NCBI RefSeq assembly: GCF_003008575.1
Contig: NZ_CP027667.1
Span: forward strand, 996,501-1,060,500
Direction: 5' to 3'
From: Melaminivora suipulveris
GTDB taxonomy: Bacteria; Pseudomonadota; Gammaproteobacteria; Burkholderiales; Burkholderiaceae_C
Length of the DNA stretch: 64,000 nt
Below are positions 16,990-64,000 of this stretch, piece by piece (positions within the stretch are counted from its first letter, which is position 1; every line of letters begins with the position of its first letter). The position numbers and the translations under genes were made by a program. Below the pieces are notes generated by a model. It ran no database searches, was not told the DNA's origin, and saw only the letters and a program-made list of their open reading frames with translations.

Positions 16990-17041
16990 CTCAAATCGGC
17001 CTTCAGCCGGCGTGCAATATGAATTCTTTGCTATTTTTTTT
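16990..17041 (-). repeat. Dispersed ~55-bp repeat, copy 1
   Basis: tcaaatcggccttcagccgg, then cgt…tttgctatttt. Member of an eight-copy family (see 20187, 32778, 39075, 42202, 51687, 54961, 61746). The family consensus, in the opposite orientation, is roughly tAGCtgcTTGCGCTTattccACGCCGrCTGAggCCGGATTTG. It sits between two glycan genes, and its end supplies the ribosome-binding region (gaagtga) for the GTG start at 17053. Confidence 0.8.
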
Positions 17042-17052
17042 GAAGTGATTCC

Positions 17053-18078
17053 GTGCGCATCCTGTTGACTTCCAGCCAGGCGCCTTTTCTGCACGGCGGG
17101 GCCGAACTGCATGGCGACCACCTGGAGGCCGCCCTGTTGCGCGCCGGCCATGCGGTCGAGCGGCTGCGCCTGCCCTTCAAGTTCTCGCCCGAATCCGATA
17201 TCGAGCGTCTGATGGCGTTTTGCGAAGGCTACGAGCTGGCGGCGCCCAACGGCCAGAGCGTGGACCGGGTGATCAGCCTGCAGTTTCCGGGCTACGGCAT
17301 GGCGCACCCGCGGCACGTGGCCTGGGTGCTGCACCAGCACCGGGCGGTGTACGAGCTGTTCGACGCCGCCCAGGCTTCACCGGCGCTGGCGCGGCTGCGC
17401 CCGCAGGTGCAGGCGTTCGACGGCCGGGCGCTCGGGCGGCTGCACCGGCTGTTTGCCAATTCGCGCCGGGTGGCGCAGCGCATGCAGCAGTGCAACGGCG
17501 TGGCGGCGACGCCGCTGTACCACCCGCCGCCGGGCGCCGATGCGCTGCGCTGCGGCGACGAGTGGGGCTATGTGTTTTTCCCAAGCCGGCTGGAGTCGCT
17601 CAAGCGCCAGGATCTGCTGATCGAGGCGGCGCGGCATCTGCGCTGCCCGGTCAAGGTGCTGATCGGCGGCACGGGCGGGCAGCAGGCGCGCTACGCGGCG
17701 CTGATCGAGCGCCATGGCCTGCAGGAGCGGGTGCGGCTGATCGGCGCGTTCTCCGAGGCCGAGCGCGTGGCGCTGTACGCGCATGCGCTGGGCGTGGTGT
17801 TCGTGCCCTTCGACGAGGACCTGGGCTACATCACGCTGGAGGCGATGTACGCGGCCAAGCCGGTCATCACCTGCAGCGATTCGGGCGGGCCGCTGGAGTT
17901 CGTGGTGCCGGGCGAGACCGGCTGGGTGGTGGCGCCCGAGCCCGAGGCGCTGGCCGAGGCCATCGAACGGTTGTGGGCCGACAAGGCGGCGGCCCGCGCC
18001 ATGGGCGCGGCGGGACGCGCCCGCGTCGAGGCGCTGGGCCTGTCGTGGGACCGGGTGGTGGACGTTTTATGTCGATGA
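17053..18078 (+). CDS. GT4-type glycosyltransferase
   Basis: A 341-residue GT-B protein. The acceptor half opens RILLTSSQAPFLHGGAELHG. The donor half has PSRLESLKRQDLLIEAA, then the family-4 motif DEDLGYITLEAMYAAKPVIT around residues 254-273 with the conserved acidic pair. Members transfer sugars from nucleotide donors at the cytoplasmic membrane face. The start is a GTG, favoured because the motif begins right there. The 3' end overlaps wzm by ten bases, placing it in the export operon. Confidence 0.88.
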   Translation: MRILLTSSQAPFLHGGAELHGDHLEAALLRAGHAVERLRLPFKFSPESDIERLMAFCEGYELAAPNGQSVDRVISLQFPGYGMAHPRHVAWVLHQHRAVYELFDAAQASPALARLRPQVQAFDGRALGRLHRLFANSRRVAQRMQQCNGVAATPLYHPPPGADALRCGDEWGYVFFPSRLESLKRQDLLIEAARHLRCPVKVLIGGTGGQQARYAALIERHGLQERVRLIGAFSEAERVALYAHALGVVFVPFDEDLGYITLEAMYAAKPVITCSDSGGPLEFVVPGETGWVVAPEPEALAEAIERLWADKAAARAMGAAGRARVEALGLSWDRVVDVLCR

Positions 18079-18911
18079 ACTCCTTGCGTGACCCGTTGCG
18101 CTGGCCGCTGCCGGGCATCGTGCGCGATGTGCTGCGCTACCGCACGTTCATCGCCGGCAGCGTGCGCCGGGACATCGAGGCGCAGTTTCGCGGCTCGCTG
18201 CTGGGCGGGGCGTGGGTGCTGATACAGCCGCTGGCGATGATCTCGATCTACACGCTGGTGTTCGCCAACGTGATGCGCAACCGCCTGGCGGGGGTGGAAT
18301 CGACGTATGGCTACAGCATTTATCTGTGCGCCGGGCTGCTGGCGTGGACGTTCTTCGCGGACTCGCTGGCGCGGCTGCAGTCGGTGTTCGTGGCCAACGC
18401 CAACTTGCTGAAGAAGGCGACCTTTCCGCGCATCTGCCTGCCGCTGGTGGCGCTGGGGGTGACGTCCTTCAATTTCTGCGTGATCAGCGCGCTGTTCCTG
18501 CTGTTCCTGCTGGTCAGCGGCAACTGGCCGGGCTGGGTGATCGCGGGCGTGCTGCCGGCGCTGGCGGTGCAGGTGGTGTGGACGCTGGCGCTGGGCATGC
18601 TGGCAGCGACGTTGAACGTGTTCTTTCGCGATGTGGGGCAACTGGTGAACGTGGGTTTGCTGTTCTGGTTCTGGCTCACGCCCATCGTCTATCCGGCCAG
18701 CGTGCTGCCGGCGTGGGCGCAGGGCTGGGCGTGGCTGAATCCGTTCGCGCTGTTCGTGCACCACTACCAGCAGGTGTTCGTGTATGCGCAGCTGCCGGGG
18801 CGCCAGGCCTGGCTGGCGCTGGCGGTGCTGGCGGCGCTGGGGCTGGCGCTGCTGTGGCTGGGCTGGCGCGTGTACCAGCAGCGCGCCCCGGAAATGGCGG
18901 ACGAGCTGTGA
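18069..18911 (+). CDS. wzm: Polysaccharide ABC exporter permease
   Basis: A 280-residue inner-membrane permease of the ABC-2/Wzm type. It has an N-terminal amphipathic stretch, FRGSLLGGAWVLIQPLAMISIYTLVF, and six hydrophobic segments; the family signature GNWPG…LPALAVQ and the LFWFWLTPIVYP motif are present. With Wzt it exports completed lipid-linked glycan (O-antigen or capsule) to the periplasm. It overlaps the upstream glycosyltransferase by ten bases and Wzt by four. The length is normal. Confidence 0.92.
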   Translation: MSMNSLRDPLRWPLPGIVRDVLRYRTFIAGSVRRDIEAQFRGSLLGGAWVLIQPLAMISIYTLVFANVMRNRLAGVESTYGYSIYLCAGLLAWTFFADSLARLQSVFVANANLLKKATFPRICLPLVALGVTSFNFCVISALFLLFLLVSGNWPGWVIAGVLPALAVQVVWTLALGMLAATLNVFFRDVGQLVNVGLLFWFWLTPIVYPASVLPAWAQGWAWLNPFALFVHHYQQVFVYAQLPGRQAWLALAVLAALGLALLWLGWRVYQQRAPEMADEL

Positions 18912-20239
18912 GCGCGCCGGCACCGGGCAGCGCGCCCGACCGCGCCCCCGACGGCGCGCCCTGGGCCATCGCGCTGGACAACCTGGGCAAGGCCTACAAG
19001 CGCTATCCGTCGCGCTGGAGCCGGCTGGCCGAGTGGCTGCGCCCGGCCGCGCCGCCGCGCCACGAGCTGCTGTGGGTGCTGCGCGGGCTGGAGCTGCGCG
19101 TGCCGCAGGGCCAGGCGCTGGGCATCATCGGGCGCAATGGCGCGGGCAAGAGCACGCTGCTGAAGATGGTCACCGGCACCACCGTGCCGACCGAGGGCGC
19201 GGTGCGCATGCACGGCCGCGTGGCGGCGCTGCTGGAGCTGGGCATGGGCTTTCATGGCGACTTCACCGGGCGGCAGAACGCCTGGATCGCCGCGCAGCTG
19301 CTGGGCCTGACCGACCGGGAGATCGCCGCGGCCATGCCGGCGGTCGAGGCTTTTGCCGAAATCGGGCATTACCTGGACGAGCCGGTACGCACCTATTCCA
19401 GCGGCATGCAGGTGCGCCTGGCCTTCAGCGTGGCCACGGCCATGCGCCCGGACGTGCTGATCGTCGATGAGGCGCTGGCGGTGGGCGACGTGTATTTCCA
19501 GCACAAGTGCTATGCGCGCATCCGGGAGTTTCGCGCGCAGGGCACGACGCTGATGTTCGTCTCGCACGACCCCGGCGCCATCAAGAGCCTGTGCGACCGC
19601 GCCGTGCTGCTGGACGGCGGGCGCATCGTGGCCGACGACGTGCCCGACCAGGTGCTGGACTTGTACAACGCACTGGTGGCCGAGCGCGAGAACAGCACCT
19701 TCGAGGCCACCGCGGCACCGGTGGGCGAGCGCTCGGTGGGCGTGCGCTCGGGTGACGGCCGCGCGAAGCTGCTGTCGGTGCAGGTGCACAACGCGCAGGG
19801 CCCGGCGCAGGTGCTGCGTGTGGGCGAGGCGCTGGAGCTGCGCATAGGGCTGCGCAAGAGCGAGGCGCTGCCCGGCCTGACGGTCGGCTTCCTGCTGCGC
19901 GACCGGCTGGGCAACGACGTGTACGGCATCAATACCTGGCACGCCCCCACCACCGGCCTGGACGAGCTGGAGCCGGGCGTGGCGGCCACGCTGGTCTGGC
20001 GCATCCCGGCGCTGCAGCTGGGGCCGGGCAGCTACACCGTGTCGGTGGCGCTGCACGGCGACATGACGCACGTGGCCGACAGCTATGACTGGTGGGACAA
20101 GGCGGCGCTGATCACGGTGGTGCGCGGGCCGGAGCCGGCGTTCGAGGGCGTGTGCCACCTGCCGGGCGTGGCTGCGGAGCTGGAGATTTGCAGCCAAAAC
20201 AGCCTCCAGCCGGCGAATGATAACGATCTCTTGCTATGA
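18908..20239 (+). CDS. wzt: Polysaccharide ABC exporter ATPase with C-terminal glycan-binding domain
   Basis: A 443-residue protein. Walker A GRNGAGKST lies near residues 76-84, the signature YSSGMQ near 162, Walker B VLIVDEAL near 183, and SHDPGAIKSLCDRAV follows. Residues ~270-420 form a β-rich Wzt C-terminal domain that in O9a-type systems recognises the modified glycan end; this fits the upstream methyltransferase as terminator. It starts with GTG in a GTGA overlap with wzm. The last ~18 residues (LEICSQNSLQPANDNDLLL) are encoded by a dispersed repeat and are unlikely to be part of the fold. Confidence 0.92.
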   Translation: MSAPAPGSAPDRAPDGAPWAIALDNLGKAYKRYPSRWSRLAEWLRPAAPPRHELLWVLRGLELRVPQGQALGIIGRNGAGKSTLLKMVTGTTVPTEGAVRMHGRVAALLELGMGFHGDFTGRQNAWIAAQLLGLTDREIAAAMPAVEAFAEIGHYLDEPVRTYSSGMQVRLAFSVATAMRPDVLIVDEALAVGDVYFQHKCYARIREFRAQGTTLMFVSHDPGAIKSLCDRAVLLDGGRIVADDVPDQVLDLYNALVAERENSTFEATAAPVGERSVGVRSGDGRAKLLSVQVHNAQGPAQVLRVGEALELRIGLRKSEALPGLTVGFLLRDRLGNDVYGINTWHAPTTGLDELEPGVAATLVWRIPALQLGPGSYTVSVALHGDMTHVADSYDWWDKAALITVVRGPEPAFEGVCHLPGVAAELEICSQNSLQPANDNDLLL

Positions 20240-20240
20240 A
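20187..20240 (-). repeat. Dispersed ~55-bp repeat, copy 2
   Basis: cagccaaaacagcctccagc, then cggcgaatga…cttgctatga. It forms the C-terminus of Wzt and its last bases (ctATGAaaa) include the start codon of the next gene, as also happens at 39081. Confidence 0.7.
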
Positions 20241-22749
20241 AATCGCATTGATTGCCCCCAGCGGCGTGCCTTTCGTGGTGGGCGGCGCGGAAAAGCTCTG
20301 GTGGGGCCTGAGCGGGCATGTGAACCGGCACACGCCGCATGCCATGGAGCTGATCAAGCTGCCCTCGCCCGAGCACGATTTCTGGTCGATCGCCGAGAGC
20401 TATGAGCGCTGGAGCCTGCTCGACCTGGACCATTTCGACGCGGTCATCTCCACCAAGTACCCGGCGTGGCTGCTGCGCCACCCCAACCATGTGGTGTACC
20501 TGCAGCACACCCTGCGCGGGCTGTACGACACTTACCCGGCGCACCTGCCGGTGCAGCCGACCCGGCTGCCGGCGGTGGCGCAGAAGCTGTGGCGGCTGCT
20601 GGAAGGTGCGGGCAGCGAGCGTGCGCTGCTGCCCGAGATCTTCGCGCAGGTGCGCGCGCTGCGCCAGGGCGCGGGCCTGGCGCCCGAGGCGCTGGCGGCC
20701 CTGACCGCCCTGCCCGGCCCGCTGGTGCGCGCGCTGGTGCACCGGCTGGATGCGATCGCCCTGGCGCCGGGGGCCATCCGGTCGTATTTCGCGATCTCGG
20801 GGGTGGTGGCGCGGCGCGAGGGGTATTTTCCGAAAGGCGCGCAGGTGACGGTGCTGCCGCATCCGTCGAACCTGGAAGGCCTGCACGGCGGGCCGCAGGA
20901 ATTCGTCTTCACCGCCAGCCGGCTGGACGCGCCCAAACGGCTGGATCTGCTGGTGCGCGCCTACCGGCGCACGCGTGCTGCCATGCCGCTGCGCATTGCC
21001 GGCGACGGCCCCGAGCGCGAGCGGCTGCAGGCGCTGGCCGCAGGCGATGCGCGCATCCGCTTCACGGGACGGCTGAACGACGACGCGCTGGTGGAGCATT
21101 ACAGCCGCGCGGCGCTGGTGCCGTTCATCCCCTACGACGAGGACATGGGCCTGATCACGCTGGAGGCCATGGGCTCGGGCAAGCCGGTGCTGACGGTGAG
21201 CGACGCGGGCGGCGTGACCGAGTTCGTGCAGGACGGCGTGAACGGCCGGGTGGTGCCGCCCGACGAGGCGGCGCTGGCGCAGGCGCTGGACGAGATGCTG
21301 GCGCAGCCGGCGCGGCTGGCGCAGATGGGCCGGGCGGCGCAGGGCACGGCGGCGCAGGTGACCTGGGAGCGCACCGCGGCCGGGCTGCTGGATGCCGCTG
21401 CCGCAGGACTGCGACCTGCGCCCGCGGCGGCGGACGCCGCCGCGCCGGCGCCGCGCGCGCAGCCGCAGCGGCTGCGCCTGCTGGTGCTGAACACCTTCGG
21501 CGCCTATCCACCCGACAGCGGGGGCAGCAAGCGGCTGTTCTACCTGGCGCAAGGCCTGGCGCAATGGGCCGACGTGACGCTGCTGACGCTGGGCGCCGCC
21601 GGCGGCGCGGCGCAGCAGTGGCGCTTCGGCGGGCACTTCCGCGAGGTGCGCGTGCCGCCGTCGCCGCGCTTCGTGGAGCGCGAGCAGGCGCTGACGCGCG
21701 CCTTGCGCCAACCGGTGACCGACGTCGCCGCGCTGCTGTACCACGGCGAGCTGCGCGAGATGCGCCAGGCCTTCGGCGTGCTGTCAGCGCAGGCGGACGT
21801 GGTGGTGGCCGCGCACGTGTACCTGGCGCCTTTGGCATTCGCGCTGTGGCACGGGCCGGTCTGGTACGACGCGCACAACGTCGAGGCGGACATGAAGGCC
21901 ATGGTGCTGGCTGCGCCGCTGCTGGGGCCGGGCACGGCCCTGCCGGCGCCGGATCGACCGCTGGACCTGCGCGCCGGCGATGCGGCGCAGCAGGCGGTTG
22001 CGCGAGTGGCGGCGGCCGAGGCGCAACTGGTGCAGCGCGCCGAGCGGGTGTGGGCGGTGAGCGAGACCAATCGCACGCGGCTGGCGCAGCTCTACGGCCG
22101 CGCCGCCGAGCGCATCGAGGTGGTGCCCAACGGCACGCAGATCCCCGCCGATGCCTGGCTGGGGGCTGAGCGCCGCGCTGCCCTGAAGCAGCAACTGGGC
22201 TGGGGGGCGCGGCCACTGGCACTGTTCGTGGCCAGCTACCACGGGCCGAATCTTGTGGCGGCCGATGCGGTGCTGGCATTGGCCGGGCAGTGCCCGCAGT
22301 GGAATTTCGCGCTGGTGGGCAGTGTCTGCAACCATGTGCGGGGGCGTGCGCAGGCTGCCAATGTGCGCGCGCTGGGCGTGTTGCCCGAAGCGGGGCTGAC
22401 GGCGCTGCTGCGCGCCGCCGACGTCGGGCTCAACCCCATGGCCAGCGGCTCGGGCACGAACCTGAAGATGCTCGACTATGCCGGCCATGGCCTGCTGGCA
22501 TTGAGCACTGCGGTGGGCGCGCGCGGTCTTGCGCTGGAGGCTGGCCGGCACTTCGTGCAGTCCGAACTGGAGGATTTCACCGCGGCGCTGGCGCGCCTGG
22601 CGCCGCTCGCGCCCGCACCCGAACCAGAGCTGCGTGCCGCGGCGCGTGCGCTGGTGGAGCGCACCTACGCCTGGGGCGTGATCGCCCAGAGCCTGCAGCC
22701 GTCTGCTGCGGACGCCGGCACAGGCATGGCCCCGGCTGCGGCGGCATGA
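20236..22749 (+). CDS. Double GT-B glycosyltransferase
   Basis: An 837-residue protein with two complete glycosyltransferase modules. Residues 1-395 are a GT4 unit, with GGAEKLWWGL near the start, ASRLDAPKRLDLLVRAY, and DEDMGLITLEAMGSGKPV near 300-317. An Ala/Pro-rich linker of ~18 residues follows, then residues 415-825 hold a second unit with NTFGAYPPDSGGSKRLFYLA, WYDAHNVEADMK and MASGSGTNLKMLDYAGHGLL. Two fused transferases suggest addition of two sugars, or a disaccharide repeat, by one enzyme. ATGA overlap with wzt couples their translation. Confidence 0.85.
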   Translation: MKIALIAPSGVPFVVGGAEKLWWGLSGHVNRHTPHAMELIKLPSPEHDFWSIAESYERWSLLDLDHFDAVISTKYPAWLLRHPNHVVYLQHTLRGLYDTYPAHLPVQPTRLPAVAQKLWRLLEGAGSERALLPEIFAQVRALRQGAGLAPEALAALTALPGPLVRALVHRLDAIALAPGAIRSYFAISGVVARREGYFPKGAQVTVLPHPSNLEGLHGGPQEFVFTASRLDAPKRLDLLVRAYRRTRAAMPLRIAGDGPERERLQALAAGDARIRFTGRLNDDALVEHYSRAALVPFIPYDEDMGLITLEAMGSGKPVLTVSDAGGVTEFVQDGVNGRVVPPDEAALAQALDEMLAQPARLAQMGRAAQGTAAQVTWERTAAGLLDAAAAGLRPAPAAADAAAPAPRAQPQRLRLLVLNTFGAYPPDSGGSKRLFYLAQGLAQWADVTLLTLGAAGGAAQQWRFGGHFREVRVPPSPRFVEREQALTRALRQPVTDVAALLYHGELREMRQAFGVLSAQADVVVAAHVYLAPLAFALWHGPVWYDAHNVEADMKAMVLAAPLLGPGTALPAPDRPLDLRAGDAAQQAVARVAAAEAQLVQRAERVWAVSETNRTRLAQLYGRAAERIEVVPNGTQIPADAWLGAERRAALKQQLGWGARPLALFVASYHGPNLVAADAVLALAGQCPQWNFALVGSVCNHVRGRAQAANVRALGVLPEAGLTALLRAADVGLNPMASGSGTNLKMLDYAGHGLLALSTAVGARGLALEAGRHFVQSELEDFTAALARLAPLAPAPEPELRAAARALVERTYAWGVIAQSLQPSAADAGTGMAPAAAA

Positions 22750-22783
22750 GCGGAGCCGGGCGACGGCACGGGGCGAGCGAGTC

Positions 22784-23347: not shown

Positions 23348-23357
23348 GGATGACCAC

Positions 23358-31563: not shown

Positions 31564-33189
31564 TCAGCGCAACTGTGCCAGTAACCCCGCCGTCGAGGCA
31601 TCCAGCCCTGTGCAATCGCCGCTGGCCAGGCGCGACTCCAGGCCCTGTGCCAGCACCTTGCCCAGTTCCACGCCCCACTGGTCGAAACTGTTGATGCCCC
31701 AGATTGCGCCGCATACGAACACCCGGTGCTCGTACAGCGCGATCAGCGCGCCCAGGGCTTCCGGCGTCAAGGCGTCCAGCAGCAGAAAGGTGCTCGGCCG
31801 GTTGCCGGCGAAGGCGCGGTGCGGGTTGTCCGGCGACGCCCTGCCCTGCATCAAGGCCTGCGCCTGCGCCAGCGCGTTGGCCAGCAGCCGCGGGTGCTGG
31901 CCGGGCAGGTCGCGCCCAGGGCGGCGCAGCGCGATGAACTCCACCGGAATCACATCCGGCCCCTGGTGGATCATCTGGAAGAAGGCATGTTGGCCGTTGG
32001 TGCCGGGCTCGCCCCAGACCACCGGAGCCGTGGCATAGGGCAGCGGCTCGCCGCTCGCGTCCACGCCCTTGCCGTTGCTCTCCATCTCCAGCTGCTGCAA
32101 ATACGCCGGCAGCCGGCGCAGGCCATGGCTGTAGGGCGCCACGCAACGGCTGGCAAAGCCGTGGAAGTTGCGGTACCACACGTCCAGAAGCGCCAGGCGC
32201 ACGGGCAGGTTGCGTTCAAGCGGCGCGCTGCGAAAGTGCTCGTCCATGGCGTGCGCGCCGGCCAGCAGCGCGCGAAAATTCTCCGCGCCGACGGCGATCG
32301 CGATCGGCAGGCCAATGGCCGACCACAGCGAGTAGCGCCCGCCCACCCAGTCCCAAAAGCCCAGCGTGGTCGTGATGCCGAATTGCGCGGCCGCCTCCAG
32401 GTTGGTCGTCAGCGCCCAGAAGTGGCGCGCCAGATCCTGCTGGCGGCCGCCCTGCGCCAGGAACCACGCACGCGCGGCCTGCGCGTTGGTCATGGTCTCG
32501 GCGGTGGTGAAGGTCTTGGAGGCGATCAGGAACAGCGTGTTTTCAGGTTGCAGCGTGCGCAGCAGGCTGCCCAGTTCCATGCCGTCGACGTTGCTGACGA
32601 AGTGCAGGCGTTTCGCGTGGAGGCGCAAATCGTCCAGCGCCTTCACCGCCATGGACGGGCCCAGGTCCGAGCCGCCGATGCCGATGTTGACGATGTCGGT
32701 GATGGCATCGTCCTGGCGCACCTGCTCGGCCAGGCCCAGCATGGCGTCCAGCGTGGCGTGCACTTCGCCTGCTGCTTGTACTATGAAATTTGTAGCTACC
32801 TGCGCTTGCTCCACGCCGACTGAGGCCGGATTTCGCAGCAACCAGTGCATGACCGCCCGCTGCTCGGTGTGGTTGATGGGCTGGCCGGCGAACAGCGCGT
32901 CGCGATGCGCCTCCACGCCGCATTCGCGCGCCAGTTGCAGCAGCAGGGCCTCGACATGCGCGTCGATCAGGCTCCTGGACAGATCGGCGTACACATGCGG
33001 CGCCTGCTGGCTGAAGTGCGCCACGCGCGCGGCGCCGCCGTCCTGGCCGGCAAAGGCGGCGCGCAGATCGAATGCGCAGCCCGCCTGGCGATGCTGCGCG
33101 ACCAGCAGGCCCCAGGCGCGCGTGCGGTCGCAGCGGGTGCGCGCATCGCGCCAGGGGCCGGGCGCGGGCGAGGCGTCCGGCCGGCTCAT
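31564..33189 (-). CDS. pgi: Glucose-6-phosphate isomerase
   Basis: A 541-residue enzyme interconverting glucose-6-P and fructose-6-P. Signature blocks: [62 protein letters not shown] with the catalytic Glu/His, and [13 protein letters not shown] with the catalytic Lys. Near residues 119-138 an unusual section ([20 protein letters not shown]) is encoded by a dispersed repeat lying in frame just before the conserved EVHATLD. Four-base overlap with tal upstream means translation is coupled. Confidence 0.96.
32778..32836 (+). repeat. Dispersed ~55-bp repeat, copy 3, inside pgi
   Basis: tgtagctacctgcgcttgct, then ccacgccgactgaggccgga. It is read antisense by pgi and stays in frame with no stop, adding about 20 residues at a surface position before a conserved helix. 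Confidence 0.8.
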
Positions 33190-37173: not shown

Positions 37174-39081
37174 TCAACGGTCGGTGAAGTGCTGCGTGCT
37201 GTAGCGGCCGTCGGGCAGGCGCGCCAGCAGCGGCAGGCCGGTGGCAGTATCGCGCGGCTGCAGCGCCATCCAGTCCAGCAGCAGGTCGGCGTCGAGCACG
37301 CCGATGTCCAGCCGGCGCTCGGGCGGCACGCCCGCCAGGGTCAGGTTGCGGTCGCCGCCGCGCGCGGTGTATTGCGGCACGAACAGGCGGTACATGCGCG
37401 AATCCTCCAGCGCGCTCCAGCGGCCGCTGGCCGGGTCGTGGATCTGCAGCGCGCTGATGCGCTCGCCGCGCGGGCGGCCCACGTCGACGGCAAAGCGCAG
37501 TCCGGCGGCATAGGGGTACGGTCCGCTGGAGCCGCCCGGCCCCCAGACGGCCTCGATGCCGTCTTCCAGCATGCCCTTGAGCTCGGCGCCGCTCACGGTG
37601 AGGCGCCACAGCGTGTTGCCAAAGGGCAGCACGCCGATGACCTGCTCGGCGGTCACCGTGCCGATGAGCGGCGTGCGCACGCCGCCGCCGTGCTGCAGCG
37701 CCACGTCGGCGCCGCCATAGCGCAGGCGCGCGACGTCCAGATAGGCCTGGGCGACCAGCTGCTGGATGTCGCCGCCGTGCCGATCGACGTGGCCCAGGGC
37801 GTTGCAGGCGGCGCTGGAGCGGCCATGGTCGATGCTGCCCGGCCCGCCCGGCACGCGGCGCGCGCACAGCTCTTCGGGTGCCACGGCGACCGGCGTGCGG
37901 GCAAAGTCGGCCACGCGCGCCTCGAAGGGCGCCAGCGCCGCCAGGGCGGCGGCGGACGGCCGGGTCACGCGCAGAAAGCCCGCAGCGGCGCGGCTGGCGG
38001 CCAGCTGCTGCGCCAGCGCGGGGGCGGGCGGCTGACCATCGACGCGCATGGCCTCGCCCACCAGCACATGCGCCGTGCCGCTGCAATCAAGCACGTTGCC
38101 GCGCGCATCGAAACGCACGCGCAGCTCGCCCAGCACCTGCGAGAACTCGGCCGCCTGCACCACGCAGACCGGCTGGCCGTCGGCATTGCGCGTGCGCACC
38201 GGGTAGTCCGCCGTGGGCGTGCCCAGGCCGGCCTGCGCCATGGCGGGTGGCCCCAGCAGGGTGTGCGAATCACCGCCGACGATGACGTCAACGCCGCGCA
38301 GGCGCTCGGCCAGGCGCCGCTCGGCCTCGTGGCCGACGTGGCTGAGCACGATGATCTTGTCGATGCCGCGCGCGCTGAGGCGGTCGATCTCGCGCTGCAC
38401 CGCCGTGGCCTCGTCCTCGAACTGCGTGCCGGGGTCGGGCGCGGAGGACACGCGGGTCTTGTAGGCCACGGTGACGCCGACGACGCCAATGTCCTGCCCG
38501 CTGCGGCGCAGCACCACCGAGGGCCGCACCATGCCCGGCGCGCGGCTTTCGTGCAGGGCCGACGCGGCGCCAAAGCGGGTGTTGGCGCTGAGCACCGGCA
38601 CCGGGCAGCGGCCCGCGGCCAGGCGATCCAGAAAGCCCTTGAGCACGCTGTCGCCCTTGTCGAACTCGTGGTTGCCCAGGGTGAAAGCGTCGAAGCAGGC
38701 CACATCCATGAGGACCGCGTCGGCCTCGCCGGCGCTGCCTGCGCGCTCGAAGTACAGCGTGCCGGTCAGCGCGTCGCCGGCGTGCAGCCTGAGCACGTTG
38801 GGGCCGGCCGCGGCGGCCAGCTCATCGAGCGCGCCGACCACGCGGGCGAAGCCCCCGACCTCCATGGCGACGGGCACGCGCCGGCCCGTGCCGTCATCGA
38901 GCTGCACCGTGGCGGCGCGCGGCTGCAGGTGCGAGTGGTGGTCGTTGATGTGCAGGACGGTGAGCTCGAACGCCGCGCCATCCGGTGCCTGCACCGGGCC
39001 GGAGCCGCCGCAGGCGGACAGCACCGCCGCCAGAGCGGGGCCGAGAAGGCGTCGCCACGCCGCACGCACATCAATTTTCAT
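37174..39081 (-). CDS. 5'-nucleotidase/UshA-like metallophosphatase lipoprotein
   Basis: A 635-residue exported protein. A lipobox LSAC places the lipidated Cys at 24. The metallophosphatase domain has LHINDHHSHL near 41-50, LHAGDALTGT, TLGNHEFDKGD, VLSHVGHEAE and GGDSHTLLG, the metal ligands of the UshA/NT5E family. The C-terminal 5'-nucleotidase domain follows (about 380-600: LQHGGGVRT, LPFGNTLWRLTVSG, QYTARGGDRN). It likely dephosphorylates nucleotides in the periplasm. The start codon lies inside a dispersed repeat, so the N-terminal MKID is repeat-derived. Confidence 0.88.
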   Translation of the reverse strand: MKIDVRAAWRRLLGPALAAVLSACGGSGPVQAPDGAAFELTVLHINDHHSHLQPRAATVQLDDGTGRRVPVAMEVGGFARVVGALDELAAAAGPNVLRLHAGDALTGTLYFERAGSAGEADAVLMDVACFDAFTLGNHEFDKGDSVLKGFLDRLAAGRCPVPVLSANTRFGAASALHESRAPGMVRPSVVLRRSGQDIGVVGVTVAYKTRVSSAPDPGTQFEDEATAVQREIDRLSARGIDKIIVLSHVGHEAERRLAERLRGVDVIVGGDSHTLLGPPAMAQAGLGTPTADYPVRTRNADGQPVCVVQAAEFSQVLGELRVRFDARGNVLDCSGTAHVLVGEAMRVDGQPPAPALAQQLAASRAAAGFLRVTRPSAAALAALAPFEARVADFARTPVAVAPEELCARRVPGGPGSIDHGRSSAACNALGHVDRHGGDIQQLVAQAYLDVARLRYGGADVALQHGGGVRTPLIGTVTAEQVIGVLPFGNTLWRLTVSGAELKGMLEDGIEAVWGPGGSSGPYPYAAGLRFAVDVGRPRGERISALQIHDPASGRWSALEDSRMYRLFVPQYTARGGDRNLTLAGVPPERRLDIGVLDADLLLDWMALQPRDTATGLPLLARLPDGRYSTQHFTDR

Positions 39082-39130
39082 AGCTGCTTGCGCTTATTCC
39101 ACGCCGACTGACGGCACTTTTTGCTTCAAA
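39075..39130 (+). repeat. Dispersed ~55-bp repeat, copy 4
   Basis: ttttcatagctgcttgcgct, then tattccacgccgactgacgg…gcttcaaa. On the minus strand its end reads gcAGCTATGAAAA and gives the ATG of the 5'-nucleotidase-like gene; its other end runs up to the 3' end of the ABC ATPase gene. Confidence 0.85.
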
Positions 39131-40277
39131 CCGGCACGATCGGGATGTCGATCCGCCCCTCCTGCACCGCATGGCAGGCCACGCGCGTGCCGTCGCCGGC
39201 ATCGAGCAGCTGCGGGCGCTCGGCGCGGCAGCGCTCGTTGGCCCAGGGGCAGCGCGGGTTGAAGGCGCAGCCGGACGGCGGGTTGAGCGGATTGGGCACC
39301 TCGCCCTGCACCGGCGTGCGCGCGCGGCCGGTGTCATGCATCTTGGGGATGGCGTCCAGCAGCATGCGCGTGTAGGGGTGGCGCGGCGCGGCGAAGAGCG
39401 TCTCCTTGCCCGCCAGCTCGACCAGCCGGCCCAGGTACATCACGCCGACCTGGTCGCTCACGTGGCGCACCACGGCCAGGTTGTGGCTGATGAACAGATA
39501 GGTCAGGCCCTGCTGGCGCTGCAGGTCCTTCATGATGTTGAGTACCTGCGCCTGCACCGAGACGTCCAGCGCGCTGGTCGGCTCGTCGCAGACCAAAAAT
39601 TCGGGCTGCGTGGCCAGCGCGCGCGCGATCGAGATGCGCTGGCGCTGCCCGCCGGAGAACTGGTGCGGGTACTTGGCGGCGTCCAGCGGCGACAGGCCCA
39701 CCGATTGCAGCAGCTCGCCCACGCGCTGGGCGAGTTGCGCCTTGTCGCTCAGGATGCCGTGCTCGCGCAGCGGCTCGGCAATGATGTCGCGGACCAGCCA
39801 GCGCGGGTTCAGGCTGGCATAGGGGTCCTGGAAAATCATCTGGATGCGCCGGCGCATGGCCTTGGCATCGCGGCCCTTGAAGGCCGCGTGCGCGTCCTGG
39901 CCATCGAAGGTGAAGCCACCGCGCGTGGGCGCGTACAGGCCCACCAGCAGGCGCGCCACGGTGCTCTTGCCGCAGCCCGATTCGCCCACCAGCGCCAGCG
40001 TCTTGCCGCGCTCTATGTCGAAGCTCACGCCGTCGACGGCGTGCAGCAGCAGGCGCGGCTTGCCCTCCAGCACGCGGTTGAGCCAGGGCGGCGAGACGTC
40101 GAAGTCGCGCGCCAGATCGCGCGCCTGCACCAGCGGCGCCGGTTTGGCTCCCTCCCCCCCTGGGGGAGGGTTGGGGTGGGGGCCAGCGCCGCCAGTACCG
40201 CTGTGTTCCATCAAACCGGCCCCCATCCCAGCCTTCCCCCAGAGGGGGAAGGAGTGAAATCCGTGCGATCCGTTCAT
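39126..40277 (-). CDS. Peptide-type ABC importer ATPase (DppF/OppF-like)
   Basis: A 383-residue ATPase: Walker A GESGCGKST near 98-106, signature FSGGQRQRISIARAL, Walker B FLVCDEPTSALD, and the oligopeptide-transporter C-terminal zone with a Cys cluster ([15 protein letters not shown]) that suggests an Fe-S site. Residues ~5-45 (PLWGKAGMGAG … PHPNPPPGGEG) are encoded by GC-rich repeats and are not part of the family. ATGA overlap with the preceding ATPase gene. Confidence 0.92.
   Translation of the reverse strand: MNGSHGFHSFPLWGKAGMGAGLMEHSGTGGAGPHPNPPPGGEGAKPAPLVQARDLARDFDVSPPWLNRVLEGKPRLLLHAVDGVSFDIERGKTLALVGESGCGKSTVARLLVGLYAPTRGGFTFDGQDAHAAFKGRDAKAMRRRIQMIFQDPYASLNPRWLVRDIIAEPLREHGILSDKAQLAQRVGELLQSVGLSPLDAAKYPHQFSGGQRQRISIARALATQPEFLVCDEPTSALDVSVQAQVLNIMKDLQRQQGLTYLFISHNLAVVRHVSDQVGVMYLGRLVELAGKETLFAAPRHPYTRMLLDAIPKMHDTGRARTPVQGEVPNPLNPPSGCAFNPRCPWANERCRAERPQLLDAGDGTRVACHAVQEGRIDIPIVPV
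40148..40255. repeat. GC-rich inverted repeat inside the DppF-like gene
   Basis: ctccctccccccctggggga with ggttggggtggggg on one side, and ccccatcccagccttccccc with agagggggaaggag on the other. These two arms of the same repeat face each other and are read through in frame as the N-terminal extension of the ATPase. Confidence 0.7.
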
Positions 40278-43496: not shown

Positions 43497-43597
43497 CTCA
43501 GTCACCCATGGCGCTGGGCGCCGCTCGTACTGCATGAAACGGGCGCGGCCCATGCGCGGGCAGCCGCGCAAGGGCCGCCCCGCCGCGCTGGCTGCGT

Positions 43598-43640
43598 CCC
43601 CCTCCCACGCGCAGCGTGAGAGAGGGGGAAGGCGCGAAGC
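43598..43640. repeat. GC-rich inverted repeat downstream of DppB-like gene
   Basis: ccccctcccacgcgcagcgt, then gagagagggggaagg: imperfect CCCCCTC…GAGGGGG arms. Related to the elements at 31493, 36620 and 40148. It lies between two operon genes and could trim or stabilise the mRNA. Confidence 0.5.
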
Positions 43641-50123: not shown

Positions 50124-51686
50124 ATGACCCAGCCTCTCACCCCTTTCGACTACCTGAAGAAGATCCTCACGGCGCGCGTCTACGACGTGGCGGTGGAGTC
50201 GGACCTGCAGCCCGCGCGCAACCTCTCGCGGCGCCTGCACAACAAGGTGCTGCTCAAGCGCGAGGATCAGCAGCCGGTGTTCAGCTTCAAGCTGCGCGGC
50301 GCCTACAACAAGATGGCGCAGTTGCCACCCGAGCAGCTGGCGCGCGGCGTGATCTGCGCCTCGGCCGGCAACCACGCGCAGGGCGTGGCCATGAGCGCCG
50401 CCCGGCTGGGCACGCGCGCCGTGGTGGTCATGCCCACTACCACGCCGCAGGTCAAGATCGACGCCGTGAAAACCCTGGGTGGACAGGTCGTGCTGCATGG
50501 CGACAGCTACTCCGACGCCTACGCCCACGCCGTGCAGCTGCAGGCCGAGCAGGGCCTGACCTTCGTCCACCCCTTCGACGACCCCGACGTGATCGCCGGC
50601 CAGGGCACCATCGCCATGGAGATGCTGCGCCAGGTGCAGCAGCTGGGCAGCGGGCTGGACGCGGTGTTCGTCGGCATCGGCGGCGGCGGGCTGATCGCTG
50701 GCGTGGCCAGCTACATCAAGGCGGTGCGCCCGGACATCCGCGTGATAGGCGTGCAGACGCAGGACTCGGACGCCATGGCGCGCTCGGCGCGCCAGCACCG
50801 GCGCGTGCAGCTCGACGACGTGGGGCTGTTTTCCGACGGCACGGCGGTGAAGCTGGTAGGCGAGGAGACCTTCCGCGTGGCGCACGACCTGGTGGACGAC
50901 TACGTGCTGGTCGACACCGACGCCGTGTGCGCCGCCATCAAGGACATCTTCGTCGACACGCGCAGCATCGTCGAGCCGGCCGGCGCGCTGGCCGTGGCCG
51001 CCATCAAGCAGTACGTGGCGCAGCACAAGACGCGCGGACAGACCTATGCGGCGATCCTGTCCGGCGCGAACATGAACTTCGACCGCCTGCGCTTCGTCGC
51101 CGAGCGCGCCGAGATGGGCGAGGAGCGCGAAGCCCTGTTCGCCGTGACCATCCCCGAGGAGCGTGGCAGCTTCAAACGCTTTTGCGAGGTCGTCGGCGCC
51201 CTGCCCGGTGGCCCGCGCAACGTGACCGAGTTCAACTACCGCATCAGCCACCAGCAGCGCGCGCATGTTTTTGTCGGCCTGTCCACGCACGGCAAGGGCG
51301 AGTCGGAAAAGCTCACCCGTAGCTTCCAGAAAGCCGGTTTCGCCGCGCTGGACCTGACGCATGACGAACTGGCCAAGGAGCACCTGCGCCACCTGGTCGG
51401 CGGCCATGCCGAGCTGGCGCGCGACGAGCGGCTGATGCGCTTCACCTTCCCCGAGCGGCCCGGCGCCTTGTTCAAATTCCTGAGCCTGATGCAGCCGACC
51501 TGGAACATCTCGCTGTTCCACTACCGCAACCAGGGCGCGGACTATGGCCGCATCCTCGTCGGCATGCAGGTGCCCGCGGGCGACGCGGCTGCGTTCGACG
51601 CCTTTTTGCACGCGCTGGACTACCCCTGGGTCGAGGAGACGGGCAACCCGGCGTACCGCATGTTCCTGCAGGCCAATGGCGCCTGA
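50124..51686 (+). CDS. ilvA: Threonine ammonia-lyase (biosynthetic threonine deaminase)
   Basis: A 520-residue PLP enzyme that converts threonine to 2-oxobutanoate for isoleucine synthesis. K56 in FSFKLRGAYNK is the Schiff-base lysine; SAGNHAQGVA and the GIGGGGLIAGVAS phosphate loop follow. Residues ~340-515 are two ACT-like regulatory domains (FAVTIPEERGSFKRFC, FTFPERPGALFKFL), the isoleucine/valine-sensing biosynthetic form. ATG 50124 matches the family start MTQPLTPFDYLKKIL. Confidence 0.96.
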   Translation: MTQPLTPFDYLKKILTARVYDVAVESDLQPARNLSRRLHNKVLLKREDQQPVFSFKLRGAYNKMAQLPPEQLARGVICASAGNHAQGVAMSAARLGTRAVVVMPTTTPQVKIDAVKTLGGQVVLHGDSYSDAYAHAVQLQAEQGLTFVHPFDDPDVIAGQGTIAMEMLRQVQQLGSGLDAVFVGIGGGGLIAGVASYIKAVRPDIRVIGVQTQDSDAMARSARQHRRVQLDDVGLFSDGTAVKLVGEETFRVAHDLVDDYVLVDTDAVCAAIKDIFVDTRSIVEPAGALAVAAIKQYVAQHKTRGQTYAAILSGANMNFDRLRFVAERAEMGEEREALFAVTIPEERGSFKRFCEVVGALPGGPRNVTEFNYRISHQQRAHVFVGLSTHGKGESEKLTRSFQKAGFAALDLTHDELAKEHLRHLVGGHAELARDERLMRFTFPERPGALFKFLSLMQPTWNISLFHYRNQGADYGRILVGMQVPAGDAAAFDAFLHALDYPWVEETGNPAYRMFLQANGA

Positions 51687-51751
51687 TTTCAAGCCAGATC
51701 GGGCTTCAGCCGGCGTGTATCAATCGCCTGTAGCTATTATTTTAATAGCTT
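51687..51751 (-). repeat. Dispersed ~55-bp repeat, copy 6
   Basis: tttcaagccagatcgggctt, then cagccggcgtgtatcaatcg and tagctattattttaatagct. It fills the whole gap between ilvA and cobS and ends with an AGCTATTA/TTTAATAGCT palindrome. Confidence 0.8.
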
Positions 51752-54773: not shown

Positions 54774-55388
54774 ATGACGACCTTCGCCACCCCGCCGCCC
54801 CGCCTGTGGCTGGTGCGCCATGCGTGCCCCGACATCGCGCCGGGCATCTGCTATGGCCGGCTGGACGTTCCTGCCCTGCCCGCGGCCAGCCGCGCCGCCG
54901 CCCAGGCATTGGCGCACGCGCTGGCGCAGCGCATCGCTGCGGTGCGCCACTCTCCGCTACAAAGATGTGAGCTGCTGGCGCTTGATTTACGCCGGCTGAG
55001 GCCGGATTTGGCTCAAATTTCCCATCCAGATCCACGCCTGATCGAGCTGGACTTCGGTCATTGGGAGGGCTGCGCCTGGGAGGCGCTGCCGCGCGCCGAC
55101 ATCGATGCCTGGTCGGCCGACCTGCATTGCCATGCCCCCGGCGGCGGCGAAGCGCTGGCGGGCATGCTGGCGCGTGTGGCCCAAGCTCTGGATGATGCGG
55201 CGCGCGCCGGCTGGAAGACCGGGGGCGACGTGGTCTGGCTGACCCACGCCGGCGTGGCACGCTGCGTCGACTGGCTGTTGCGCCACGGGCCCGACGAGCC
55301 GGCCGACGCCGCGCGCTGGCCGCTGCACGCACCCGGCTATGGCGCGTGGACGACGGTGTCGCTGCCGCGCCCGGCCGCAGTGGCTTAA
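54774..55388 (+). CDS. cobC: CobC-like histidine phosphatase (alpha-ribazole phosphatase)
   Basis: A 204-residue phosphoglycerate mutase-like phosphatase. The catalytic histidine is in LVRHACPD (the usual RHG is RHA here); GICYGRLDVPAL is typical of CobC, then HSPLQRC, ELDFGHWEG and the second catalytic His in LTHAGVAR. It would dephosphorylate alpha-ribazole-5'-P in the same pathway as CobS. Residues ~64-82 (ELLALDLRRLRPDLAQIS) come from a dispersed repeat inserted in frame. Confidence 0.85.
   Translation: MTTFATPPPRLWLVRHACPDIAPGICYGRLDVPALPAASRAAAQALAHALAQRIAAVRHSPLQRCELLALDLRRLRPDLAQISHPDPRLIELDFGHWEGCAWEALPRADIDAWSADLHCHAPGGGEALAGMLARVAQALDDAARAGWKTGGDVVWLTHAGVARCVDWLLRHGPDEPADAARWPLHAPGYGAWTTVSLPRPAAVA
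54961..55020 (+). repeat. Dispersed ~55-bp repeat, copy 7, inside cobC
   Basis: gagctgctggcgcttgattt, then acgccggctgaggccggatt and tggctcaaat. Read in frame by the phosphatase gene between the RC of HSPLQRC and the DPRLIELDFG block. Confidence 0.85.
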
Positions 55389-60803: not shown

Positions 60804-60864
60804 TCGACCACCCAACCCATCCTGCACCGTCCCCCATCCGCGCGCCCATCTCACAAAGCCCTTC

Positions 60865-61680: not shown

Positions 61681-61688
61681 ACGCGCTC

Positions 61689-64000
61689 ATGACTTCCATG
61701 CCTTCCTTCACCACACCGCGCCGCTTCCCTCCGGCCATGCGACTTGCTATCCATTCGATAGCTGCATGCGCTTTATTGACGGCGACTGGCGGCCTCATTC
61801 ATGCCCAAACCGGCAGCGTGCGGCCGAACGAGCCGGTGACGCTGAACTTCACCGGCGCCGACATCGAGGCCGTGGCGCGCACCATGGCCACCATCACCGG
61901 GCGCAACGTGGTGGTCGATCCACGCGTCAAGGGCCAGCTGACCTTGCTGACCGAGCGCGCCGTGCCGCCGGCCAAGGCTTTCGAGCAATTCCTGGCGGCG
62001 TTGCGCCTGCAAGGCTTCACGGTGGTCGAGTCCGGCGGCCTGTACAAGGTCGTGCCCGAGGCCGATGCCAAGCTGCAGACCGGCACGGTGGCGGTCACTC
62101 AGGGCGCTTCGGGCCGGGCGCCTTCCGGCGGGCAGATCGTCACGCAGATCTTCAAGCTGAACTTCGAGAACGCGAACAACCTGGTGCCGGTGCTGCGCCC
62201 GCTCATCAGCCCGAACAACACCATCAACGTCAACCCCGGCAACAACTCACTGGTCATCACCGACTACGCCGACAACCTGCAGCGCCTGGCGCGCATCATC
62301 GCCGCCATGGACGTGTCCAACGCCAGCGACGTCGAGGTCATCCCGCTACAGCACGCCGTGGCGGCCGACCTGGCGCCGCTGGTGGCGCGGCTGATCGAGG
62401 GCGGCGGCACGGGCGCGGGCGGCCCGGCGGTGGCGCAGGGCCAGAGCGACACCTCCTTCAAGACCACGCTTTTGGCCGAGCCGCGCAGCAACGCGCTGAT
62501 CGTGCGCGCGGCCAATCCGGCGCGCGTGGCGCTGGTGCGCTCTCTCGTGGCCAAGCTGGACCAGCCAGCCGCCACGGGCGCTGGCGCGGCCAGTGGCAAC
62601 ATCCATGTGGTCTACCTGAAGAACGCCGATGCCGTGAAGCTGGCGACCACGCTGCGCGCGGCGCTGGGCGGCGCTGCCGGCAGCGGGGCTGGGGCGGATG
62701 CGGGCACGCCATCGACCTCGGCGCGCGGTGGCGGGCTGTCCGGCGGCGCGGGCGGCCTGACCAGCGGCGGGCTGGGCCAGCCAGCGGGCGGCGCGGGCAT
62801 GGGCACGGCGGGCGGCCTGGGCGCCAGCGCGCCGTCGCTGTCCGGCGGCGCGGGCGGCAGCGGCAGCCAGCCGTCGACGGGCGGCATCATCCAGGCCGAT
62901 CCGAGCACCAACTCGCTGATCATCAGCGCGCCGCCGCCGCTGTTCCGGCAGATCCGCGCCGTCATCGACAAGCTCGACGGCCGGCGCGCGCAGGTGCTGG
63001 TGGAGAGCCTGATCGTCGAGGTGCGCGCCAGCAAGGTCGCGGAGTTCGGCATCCAGTGGCAGGGCGTACTGGGCCACATGGGCGGCACTCTGGGCGTTTT
63101 GGGCACCAACTCGGGCATCTCCGGCACCAACATCCTGAACCTGGCGCTGGCCGCGGCGGGCGCGGCCAACGGCAACCTGACGGGCCTGGGCGCGGCCGGC
63201 GCCAAGCCGGCGCCGGGCATGAACATCGCCATCGCCCCGCGCATCGACGGCAAGTACTACCTGGGCGCGCTGGCCAATTTCCTGGACAACACCGGCGACG
63301 CCAACGTGCTGTCCACGCCCAATCTGATGACACTGGACAACGAGGAGGCGCAGATCGTCATCGGCGACAACGTGCCCTTCCCCACCGGCTCCTACGCCAA
63401 CACCGGCGGCATGGGCGGGGCCGTCAACCCCTTCACCACGGTGGAGCGCAAGGACGTCGGCCTGATGCTGCGCGTGCGCCCGACCATCAACGAAAACGGC
63501 ACCGTCAAGCTGTCGCTGTACCAGGAGGTCTCCAAGGTCGCCGCCAACACGCTGAACAACGTCAACGGGCCGACGACCAGCAAGCGCTCCATCGAATCCA
63601 CGGTGCTGGTCGAGGACGGCAGCGTGATCGTGCTGGGCGGCCTGCTGGAGGACAGCTACGGCCTGGCGCAGGACAAGGTACCGCTGGCCGGCGACCTGCC
63701 GCTGCTGGGCGGCTTGTTCAGGAGCGAAAAGCGCACGCGCGAGAAAACCAACCTGATGGTCTTCCTGCGCCCTGTCGTCATCCGCGACAGCGTCACCAGC
63801 GACGCGCTGATGGTCGACCGCTACGAGGCCATTCGCGCGCTGCAGGAGGTGAGCCAGCCGGCGCCGAGCCAGATGCTGCGCAGCGTGTCCGAGGCGCCCG
63901 TGCTGCCGGCGCTGCCGCCCACCGCGCCTGCGGTCAGGGCCACCGCGCCCGCGCCGCTGGCTCCGGTGCGGCCGACGCTGCGCCCGGCCCCGCCGGTGCA
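61689..64000 (+). CDS. gspD: Type II secretion secretin GspD (3' end outside window)
   Basis: 770 codons from ATG 61689 without stop. A signal peptide ends near LIHA39|QTGSV. N0 domain (VTLNFTGADIEAVARTMATI), N1-N3 repeats (YADNLQRLARIIAAMD, PLQHAVAADLAPLV, DPSTNSLIISAPP), with an insert of ~80 Gly/Ala/Ser-rich residues in N3 (about 325-400), then the secretin core: LVESLIVEVRASK, LSTPNLMTLDNEEAQIVIG, NVPFPTG, VLVEDGSVIVLGGLLED. It makes the outer-membrane channel. The signal peptide core is encoded by a dispersed repeat. Confidence 0.95.
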   Translation, partial: MTSMPSFTTPRRFPPAMRLAIHSIAACALLTATGGLIHAQTGSVRPNEPVTLNFTGADIEAVARTMATITGRNVVVDPRVKGQLTLLTERAVPPAKAFEQFLAALRLQGFTVVESGGLYKVVPEADAKLQTGTVAVTQGASGRAPSGGQIVTQIFKLNFENANNLVPVLRPLISPNNTINVNPGNNSLVITDYADNLQRLARIIAAMDVSNASDVEVIPLQHAVAADLAPLVARLIEGGGTGAGGPAVAQGQSDTSFKTTLLAEPRSNALIVRAANPARVALVRSLVAKLDQPAATGAGAASGNIHVVYLKNADAVKLATTLRAALGGAAGSGAGADAGTPSTSARGGGLSGGAGGLTSGGLGQPAGGAGMGTAGGLGASAPSLSGGAGGSGSQPSTGGIIQADPSTNSLIISAPPPLFRQIRAVIDKLDGRRAQVLVESLIVEVRASKVAEFGIQWQGVLGHMGGTLGVLGTNSGISGTNILNLALAAAGAANGNLTGLGAAGAKPAPGMNIAIAPRIDGKYYLGALANFLDNTGDANVLSTPNLMTLDNEEAQIVIGDNVPFPTGSYANTGGMGGAVNPFTTVERKDVGLMLRVRPTINENGTVKLSLYQEVSKVAANTLNNVNGPTTSKRSIESTVLVEDGSVIVLGGLLEDSYGLAQDKVPLAGDLPLLGGLFRSEKRTREKTNLMVFLRPVVIRDSVTSDALMVDRYEAIRALQEVSQPAPSQMLRSVSEAPVLPALPPTAPAVRATAPAPLAPVRPTLRPAPPV
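61746..61810 (+). repeat. Dispersed ~55-bp repeat, copy 8, in the gspD signal peptide
   Basis: gatagctgcatgcgctttat, then tgacggcgactggcggcctc and attcatgcccaaa. Same orientation as copies 4 and 7. It encodes about residues 21-41 of GspD, the hydrophobic and cleavage region of the signal peptide. Confidence 0.75.

What the first reader, a model, noticed from the sequence alone, without database searches (positions are those of the whole stretch)
16990..61810. A ~55-bp dispersed repeat that builds parts of genes
Eight copies (16990, 20187, 32778, 39075, 42202, 51687, 54961, 61746) share a core like GCTTGCGCTT…ACGCCGRCTGA…CCGGATTT. Three are purely intergenic. The other five shape genes: copies 2 and 4 supply the ATG of the next gene (ctATGAAAA), copy 2 also codes the Wzt C-terminus, copies 3 and 7 are read in frame inside pgi and cobC, and copy 8 codes the GspD signal peptide core. 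A repeat that is mostly stop-free and repeatedly domesticated into coding sequence is unusual and could be a route to new N-termini and linkers.
Basis: partly seen in the sequence, partly recalled or inferred. Interest (0 to 1): 0.72.

Follow-up and report, generated by a model that had tools for sequence, protein, structure and literature searches.

The report
Dispersed repeat with species-specific cores
A short DNA element sits between genes at hundreds of places in this bacterium, mostly at the same places as in a related species, yet the species spell its middle part differently, even in some of the few copies that lie inside genes.

Summary
All eight copies are real (E 3e-15 to 6e-11, next best E 4). 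They belong to a family of about 570 copies here (119 in 784 kb, reversed control 0), abundant in 28 of 80 genomes of the family. It avoids genes: 25 of 209 copies in stretches of five genomes lie inside one, against 84% for random placement. So 'builds parts of genes' describes exceptions, though real ones: a Pgi loop, a CobC segment, two start codons, probably the GspD signal peptide. The surprise is evolutionary. At 36 of 41 comparable sites Pulveribacter suum has the element in the same place and orientation, yet the 11-bp core resembles other copies of its own genome (0.80, 0.60) more than the orthologous copy (0.46); flanks do the opposite. Pgi copies of four species follow their own genome's core, one narrowly. 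I favour DNA recognition sites rewritten in place as a factor drifts. A Y1 (RAYT-like) protein is a candidate: copies lie within 200 bp of 6 of 8 such loci examined, but Y1 presence does not track the family (p 0.18).

The parts
16982..17040 (-). copy 1, intergenic, 12 nt before the gene called at 17053
   Evidence: 41.4 bits, E 5e-12; between two + genes
20185..20243 (-). copy 2, codes the Wzt C-terminus (aa 426-443) and supplies the ATG of the gene at 20236
   Evidence: 42.1 bits; gene calls
32786..32842 (+). copy 3, inside pgi (31564-33189 -), aa 116-135; the gene runs opposite to the element
   Evidence: 47.5 bits; Pgi alignment; same site in G001, G003, G004, element-like in G008 by eye
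39074..39132 (+). copy 4, between two - genes; supplies the ATG of 37174-39081
   Evidence: 49.6 bits
42195..42252 (-). copy 5, intergenic; the same spacer holds a copy in the same orientation in G001 and in the other orientation in G003 and G008; none seen in G004
   Evidence: 44.5 bits, by eye
51685..51743 (-). copy 6, between the gene 50124-51686 and cobS (51758-52564); same site and orientation in G001, G003, G004
   Evidence: 51.8 bits, best in window; CobS by Pfam, by eye
54962..55020 (+). copy 7, inside cobC (54774-55388 +), aa 63-83 QRCELLALDLRRLRPDLAQIS
   Evidence: 47.3 bits; same site in G001, G003, G008 and by eye in G004
61753..61810 (+). copy 8, at the gspD start; codes the hydrophobic core of the signal peptide if an upstream ATG is used
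   Evidence: 38.1 bits; translation; gene caller start 61818; same site in G001, G003, G004, G008 by eye

Best explanation
The copies belong to an old, largely vertically inherited, REP-like element family of Comamonadaceae. Anatomy: a fixed left foot GCTAT-N7-ATAGCT, a lineage-specific core (positions 7-36, in most species an inverted repeat) and an A/T-rich right end (ATTTgactcaAAA). Shown: about 570 copies in this genome, mostly in spacers and rarely in divergent ones; sites and orientations shared between species; cores that follow the genome while flanks follow the locus; very uneven conservation along the element. Inferred: the element is a recognition site in double-stranded DNA for a trans-acting factor whose specificity drifted in each lineage, and resident copies followed it by substitution in place (through selection or a copy-favouring drive) more than by fresh transposition. 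A single-copy Y1 (RAYT-like) protein is the only candidate factor found. Copies inside pgi and cobC are old captures that the proteins tolerate.
For: Same site and orientation in P. suum for 36 of 41 comparable sites, opposite 1, no hit 4. Core 22-32: orthologous identity 0.46 against 0.80 and 0.60 within genomes (0 of 500 label swaps reach the observed statistic); flanks 0.40-0.45 orthologous against 0.28-0.30 within; same sign for G000 against G004 (16 pairs), G001 (9) and G008 (8). G000-G003 pairs keep locus memory at ends and flanks (0.16-0.43) and little in the core (0.06-0.08). Pgi copies score best on their own species' core in 4 of 4 species scored, P. suum only narrowly (32.8 against 31.9). 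Among all 119 copies of this genome, core positions 22-27, 29 and 30 are 72-99% conserved while positions 10, 20 and 37-39 are at 29-47%. No pair of the 51 G000 copies is more alike than column shuffles allow (36 of 42; shuffled maximum 38), and no pair of positions more than 5 apart exceeds the shuffled linkage: no sign of recent copying here. Orientation against transcription is 70 to 69 in 139 co-directional spacers. ACGCCGRCTGA occurs 23 times in 424 kb, 23 in the element. Candidate factor: the hairpin is kept in G003, G001 and G008, which have the MARLPR-type Y1 gene, and weak or lost in G004 and G000, which do not (five genomes, noticed afterwards).
Against: No factor is proven; Y1_Tnp presence does not track the family (24 of 28 repeat-rich, 37 of 52 repeat-poor genomes, p 0.18). 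G003 against G008 shows no significant dialect difference (p 0.07), and G003 against G004 only a small one, with orthologous cores more alike (0.62) than within-genome cores (0.55). The five neighbouring positions 24-28 differ between the P. suum and G000 consensus, which is much to ask of site-by-site substitution at hundreds of loci. 20 of 119 copies here score best on another species' core. Some sites are occupied in one species and absent in the other. Pairwise-similarity variance exceeds column shuffles in three genomes (z 9-13) and P. suum and G004 have pairs 41-42 of 42 alike, which may mean copying there. Copies were found with models that include the core, so old-type copies are under-sampled; the flank comparison is ungapped and so underestimates orthologous identity. 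The G001 CobC copy scores best on the G000 core and G008's ties with G003.
Confidence: 0.46

Rival explanations
1. A classical REP/REPIN population: a RAYT transposase copies a master element at a low rate, so each species' population turns over and drifts with its own master.
For: High copy, extragenic, palindromic in most species, (A/G)TAG foot beside a hairpin; rare in divergent spacers (6 of 128) and common in convergent ones (39 of 131). Copies lie within 200 bp of 6 of 8 Y1-gene loci examined, against 21-31% of all genes in four genomes: MARLPR type in G001, G003 and G008 (one shared 3' site) and G022 (5' side), not G006; 366-aa type in G000 (about 50 bp from its 3' end) and G002 (about 175 bp upstream), not G001. 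Hairpin kept where the MARLPR type is present. Near-identical pairs exist in P. suum and G004.
Against: The 366-aa gene matches over its full length in 2 of 80 family genomes and is in fragments in P. suum. PF01797 does not track the family (p 0.18), and the complete repeat-rich genome G032 has no match. The MARLPR gene has another motif (TTGGAATCTGACCCC) in its flanks in G003 and G008. Turnover should lose shared sites; 36 of 41 are shared. No near-identical copies in G000.
Confidence: 0.26
2. Gene conversion between dispersed copies homogenises the core within each genome.
For: Explains same sites with genome-specific cores, also in genes; proposed for REPs (Higgins et al. 1988, seen only as a reference entry in PMC3116915). 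Linked changes are between neighbouring positions.
Against: A tract should also homogenise positions 17-21 and 33-35, which are at 37-82% among all 119 copies while 22-27, 29 and 30 are at 72-99%; loop positions 17-22 keep locus memory between G003 and G004 (0.29, 0 of 1000 permutations). Copies share only about 27 of 42 bp, little for recombination.
Confidence: 0.14
3. Independent insertions into the same preferred spacers in each lineage.
For: Spacers are a narrow niche; the copy-5 spacer holds copies in different orientations in different species; a Rhodoferax pgi loop holds an unrelated repeat-like peptide (L092).
Against: 36 of 37 occupied shared sites have the same orientation and share base-level variants at ends and flanks.
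Confidence: 0.07
4. An RNA-level element (terminator, attenuator or mRNA-stability hairpin).
For: Strong hairpin in P. suum (mean z -2.9) and G001 (-2.7, with a 13/27 G-C to C-G swap); position mostly downstream of genes.
Against: Hairpin lost in this genome (z -0.4, other strand -0.8); no covariation in 53 copies from other genera (69.1% paired, shuffled 69.0); no orientation preference.
Confidence: 0.07

Closest known systems
REP / BIME / REPIN elements
   Same: Hundreds of short, extragenic, palindromic copies, rare in divergent spacers, TAG foot beside the hairpin; copies near most of the Y1 genes examined
   Different: Y1 presence does not track the family; most sites shared between two species; hairpin lost in this genome while its core is conserved; foot is part of a GCTAT-N7-ATAGC palindrome; mostly ATAG, not GTAG
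DNA uptake sequence dialects of Neisseriaceae (PMC3630211, abstract and outline seen)
   Same: Many copies, species-specific spelling conserved within each species
   Different: DUS is a 12-mer that also lies in genes (recalled); here the core string occurs only inside a longer element (23 of 23) that avoids genes; uptake not testable
Rickettsia palindromic elements (recalled; search listing only)
   Same: Repeats read in frame inside proteins
   Different: RPEs are known for lying inside genes (recalled); this family is mostly extragenic and its compared genic copies are shared old sites
BRE, Betaproteobacterial repeat element (PMC3110155, passages seen)
   Same: Betaproteobacterial; some copies overlap gene ends or lie in genes; listed in Polaromonas, Delftia, Acidovorax
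   Different: BRE: 75-91 bp, 69% G+C, at most 29 copies, some in tandem; here 39-56% G+C in the window's copies and about 570 copies. BRE sequences were not fetched for comparison

Membership tests
REP | high copy, extragenic | tested here: met
   about 570 copies; 184 of 209 outside genes
REP | palindrome able to form a hairpin | tested here: inconclusive
   met in G003, G001, G008, weak in G004, lost in this genome; no covariation
REP | GTAG-type foot beside the hairpin | tested here: inconclusive
   mostly ATAGC, some GTAGC; AGC invariant in 53 copies. The GTAG rule is from a title and listing (PMC3733652) and recall
REP | cognate RAYT flanked by the element | tested here: inconclusive
   copy within 200 bp of 6 of 8 Y1 loci examined, three of them one shared site; background 21-31% of genes; PF01797 not associated with the family
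DNA uptake sequence | short motif abundant on its own | tested here: not met
   ACGCCGRCTGA 23 of 23 inside the element in 424 kb
DNA uptake sequence | biased uptake in transformation | not testable with these tools
   needs an experiment
MITE | terminal inverted repeats | tested here: inconclusive
   the two ends of the consensus look unrelated, judged by eye
MITE | target-site duplication | not tested
   -
BRE | G+C-rich, at most tens of copies | tested here: not met
   composition and number differ from the passages of PMC3110155

The most novel reading that the evidence does not exclude
Comamonadaceae carry a genome-wide marking system of a new kind: hundreds of fixed chromosomal sites whose recognition core is rewritten in concert, species by species and in place, strongly enough to change codons of a Pgi loop and of CobC, by co-evolution with (or drive from) a DNA-binding or DNA-processing factor, perhaps a domesticated Y1 protein.
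Probability: 0.3. Interest if true: 0.85.

Novelty: new variant of a known kind. Interest (0 to 1): 0.62.

Why it matters
Concerted change of dispersed copies that stay at their orthologous sites is hard to explain by simple transposition or by neutral decay. It makes an old question about REP-like elements testable: are they passengers, or sites kept in step with a host factor? Genic copies are a useful internal control, since protein selection and core selection act on the same bases. Several related genera with different cores are available for comparison.

Tried and rejected
Rfam: no family matches any of the eight copies; the one gathering-level hit, RF02278 at 49988-50052, is elsewhere. 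Y1/RAYT as the factor: pursued through PF01797, the MARLPR-type protein and the 366-aa protein; first set aside, then partly reinstated after one search showed copies beside 6 of 8 loci, for which I raised the REP/RAYT rival (0.20 to 0.26) and lowered the others slightly. DUS-like isolated motif: rejected. Regular spacing: not different from random choice of spacers (G000 CV 0.83 against 0.94 +- 0.13, p 0.2; G003 p 0.25). Hairpin covariation: none. Whole-copy subfamilies in G000: no long-range linkage; but pairwise-similarity variance is above column shuffles in three genomes, which I read as unequal decay, without proof. The near-identical pairs of P. suum and G004 were not traced. An earlier conservation figure used only 99 copies chosen by their core; I replaced it by all 119. 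Literature: eight searches listed no description of this element as far as titles and abstracts show; six exact core spellings gave 0 papers. PMC3733652 contains none of six Comamonadaceae/Burkholderiales words searched. PMC8049555, PMC3116915, PMC2267715 and PMC3110155 were seen as passages only, PMC3630211 as abstract and outline. Structure prediction was not used.
Full report
OBSERVATION. A sequence-only model of the eight copies finds these eight in the window at 38-52 bits; the ninth best is 3.7 bits. The repeat finder sees the same two strand groups without that model. In the genome (3,754,020 bp, one contig) 150 of 150 scored candidates have E <= 1.7e-8, with 1395 first-look candidates. 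An even 400-kb sample outside the window holds 58 matches at E <= 1, the weakest 0.04. With models from several species, 784 kb of this genome hold 119 merged copies and the reversed sequence none; that extrapolates to about 570.

WHO. The protein database names the contig of length 3,358,427 as Pulveribacter suum (= G003) and that of 3,842,277 as Oryzisolibacter sp. LB2S (= G008). G003 is labelled same genus as the window, so the window is probably a Pulveribacter species; that is an inference, as is Comamonadaceae for the family.

WHERE COPIES LIE. In the 464-kb sample 41 of 66 matches (weak ones included) are intergenic, 15 overlap a gene end or start and 10 are inside; random placement gives 8%, 8% and 84% (own gene caller, starts approximate). 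Over stretches of five genomes 209 copies fall as 139 in co-directional, 39 in convergent and 6 in divergent spacers and 25 inside genes, against 884, 131 and 128 spacers (p about 2e-4 for the convergent excess and the divergent deficit). Orientation against transcription is 70 same, 69 opposite.

SAME SITES, DIFFERENT CORES. Stretches of 424 kb (G000), 400 kb (G003), 240 kb (G004), 85 kb (G001) and 175 kb (G008) were compared; species-wise iterated searches gave 51, 81, 43, 15 and 19 merged copies, with no hit on reversed sequence. Consensus cores align without gaps over 42 columns and differ: G000 CACGCCGACTGA, G003 CAAGCGCTGGA, G004 CAAGGGTTTGA, G001 AAGGGCTGG. Of 51 G000 copies, 41 have a comparable P. 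suum site: 36 same orientation, 1 opposite, 4 without a hit. For those four two P. suum spacers are short (about 30 and 37 nt) and two are longer and unalike. Of five P. suum copies without a G000 hit, one is a G000 copy with an old-type core; the other four face unlike sequence of 50-133 nt. The other comparisons have fewer sites: G000 to G004 16 same, 1 opposite, 5 none; to G001 9, 0, 3; to G008 8, 2, 5.

STATISTICS. For 36 G000-G003 pairs the core (22-32) is 0.46 identical, against 0.80 within G000 and 0.60 within P. suum; flanks are 0.40-0.45 against 0.28-0.30. None of 500 label swaps reached the observed core statistic. G000 against G004, G001 and G008 agree; G003 against G001 too (p 0.002); G003 against G004 is small though significant; G003 against G008 is not significant (p 0.07). 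Leave-one-out assignment of copies to their own genome's core: G000 46 of 51, G003 59 of 81, G004 34 of 43, G001 14 of 15, G008 10 of 19. Locus memory in G000-G003 pairs is 0.16-0.43 at ends and flanks and 0.06-0.08 in positions 17-31, small but still above permutation (p 0.02 and 0.004); in G003-G004 pairs the loop keeps 0.29.

GENIC COPIES. The Pgi copies of G000, G003, G004 and G001 each score best on their own genome's core, G003 narrowly (32.8 against 31.9 for G008). The Pgi copy of G008 is visible by eye but was not picked up by the search and not scored. Of four CobC copies scored, G000 and G003 are best on their own, G008 ties with G003, and G001 is best on G000. CobC residues after LDL or VHL vary with the core (by eye), and the codons CTA, AGA and TTA look out of place in a 69% G+C genome (for G+C; judged by eye). 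Pgi loops with a detected repeat are 23 aa or longer in 15 of 15 loci; without, the median is 18.5 in 64; one of 80 was not parsed. Wzt of G004 carries a copy in mid-protein (35.5 bits), at another place than in G000: the one case that looks like an independent capture.

CONSTRAINT. Among all 119 copies of this genome AGC at 3-5 is 100%, core positions 22-27, 29 and 30 are 72-99%, and positions 10, 20 and 37-39 are 29-47%. Such unevenness is what a maintained recognition site gives; a burst followed by uniform decay, or one long conversion tract, would not. Detection by models that include the core favours this pattern somewhat. No position pair more than 5 apart exceeds shuffled linkage, in 99 or in 119 copies.

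STRUCTURE AND THE Y1 GENES. The hairpin is strong in P. suum, G001 and G008, weaker in G004, absent in this genome. In 53 copies from other genera pairs are kept only as often as in column shuffles. With the orientation balance this argues for a DNA-level role. On re-checking, family copies lie within 200 bp of 6 of 8 Y1-gene loci examined, against 79 of 373, 107 of 356, 57 of 201 and 23 of 73 genes in four genomes; three of the six are one shared site, so at most four are independent. The MARLPR-type gene is present in G001, G003 and G008 and has no match in G004; G000 has only the 366-aa type. That agrees with where the hairpin is kept, but rests on five genomes and was noticed afterwards.

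DISTRIBUTION. With a structured model from 53 copies of other genera, 28 of 80 genomes of the family (this one included) have 29 or more matches (scoring stopped at 64) and 52 have 0 to 6. Stricter filters were used and divergent cores may be missed. PF01797 is present in 24 of the 28 and 37 of the 52 (p 0.18). Pulveribacter-derived models gave 84 merged matches over the 80 Pgi loci (1.43 Mb), 15 of them in the Pgi loop; the reversed control gave 8 against 76 for one model and 0 against 29 for the other, so the weakest are doubtful.

VERDICT. A real, old, REP-like family, mostly outside genes. The surprise is genome-specific rewriting of the core at inherited sites, strongest for this genome against its relatives. 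The factor behind it is not established.

Noticed in passing
window 49988-50052 (+): Rfam RF02278, Betaproteobacteria toxic small RNA, 57 bits over a cut-off of 50; a weaker match (33.8 bits) elsewhere in the genome.
   Followed up: no
window 40145-40260: An inverted-repeat element (CCTCCCCC...GGGGGAGG): 1 match in 424 kb of G000 but 49 in 240 kb of G004.
   Followed up: partly
window 43494-43600 and 56351-56453: Two other G+C-rich dispersed repeats of about 100 bp: 4 and 2 matches in 424 kb of G000, 8 and 9 in 400 kb of G003; also in G001 and G008.
   Followed up: partly
window 7551-7748 (-), perhaps 6379-6462 (-): Fragments resembling the C-terminus of the 366-aa Y1-like protein (53% identity, E 8e-15; the second only E 0.03), in the 3.5-9.6 kb zone of long internal direct repeats.
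   Followed up: no
L092 (Rhodoferax MAG), pgi loop: The same Pgi loop holds a 55-aa segment with the peptide HCEERSDAAIA, known to me (recalled) from other dispersed repeats: the loop tolerates insertions.
   Followed up: no
L079 (Polaromonas MAG) 3581-3647, 10356-10422, 11673-11739, 18577-18643: Four matches (two of them weak, 16-17 bits), one in pgi, share AGGCAATA[AG]ATACG[AC]CGGCT, suggesting local cores in other genera too.
   Followed up: partly
G003 C1:3094129-3094830: Y1-transposase-like gene; PF01797 is found in 61 of 80 genomes of the family. In G003 and G008 its flanks carry TTGGAATCTGACCCC motifs and a weak copy of the present family at its 3' end (20.9 and 18.2 bits).
   Followed up: partly
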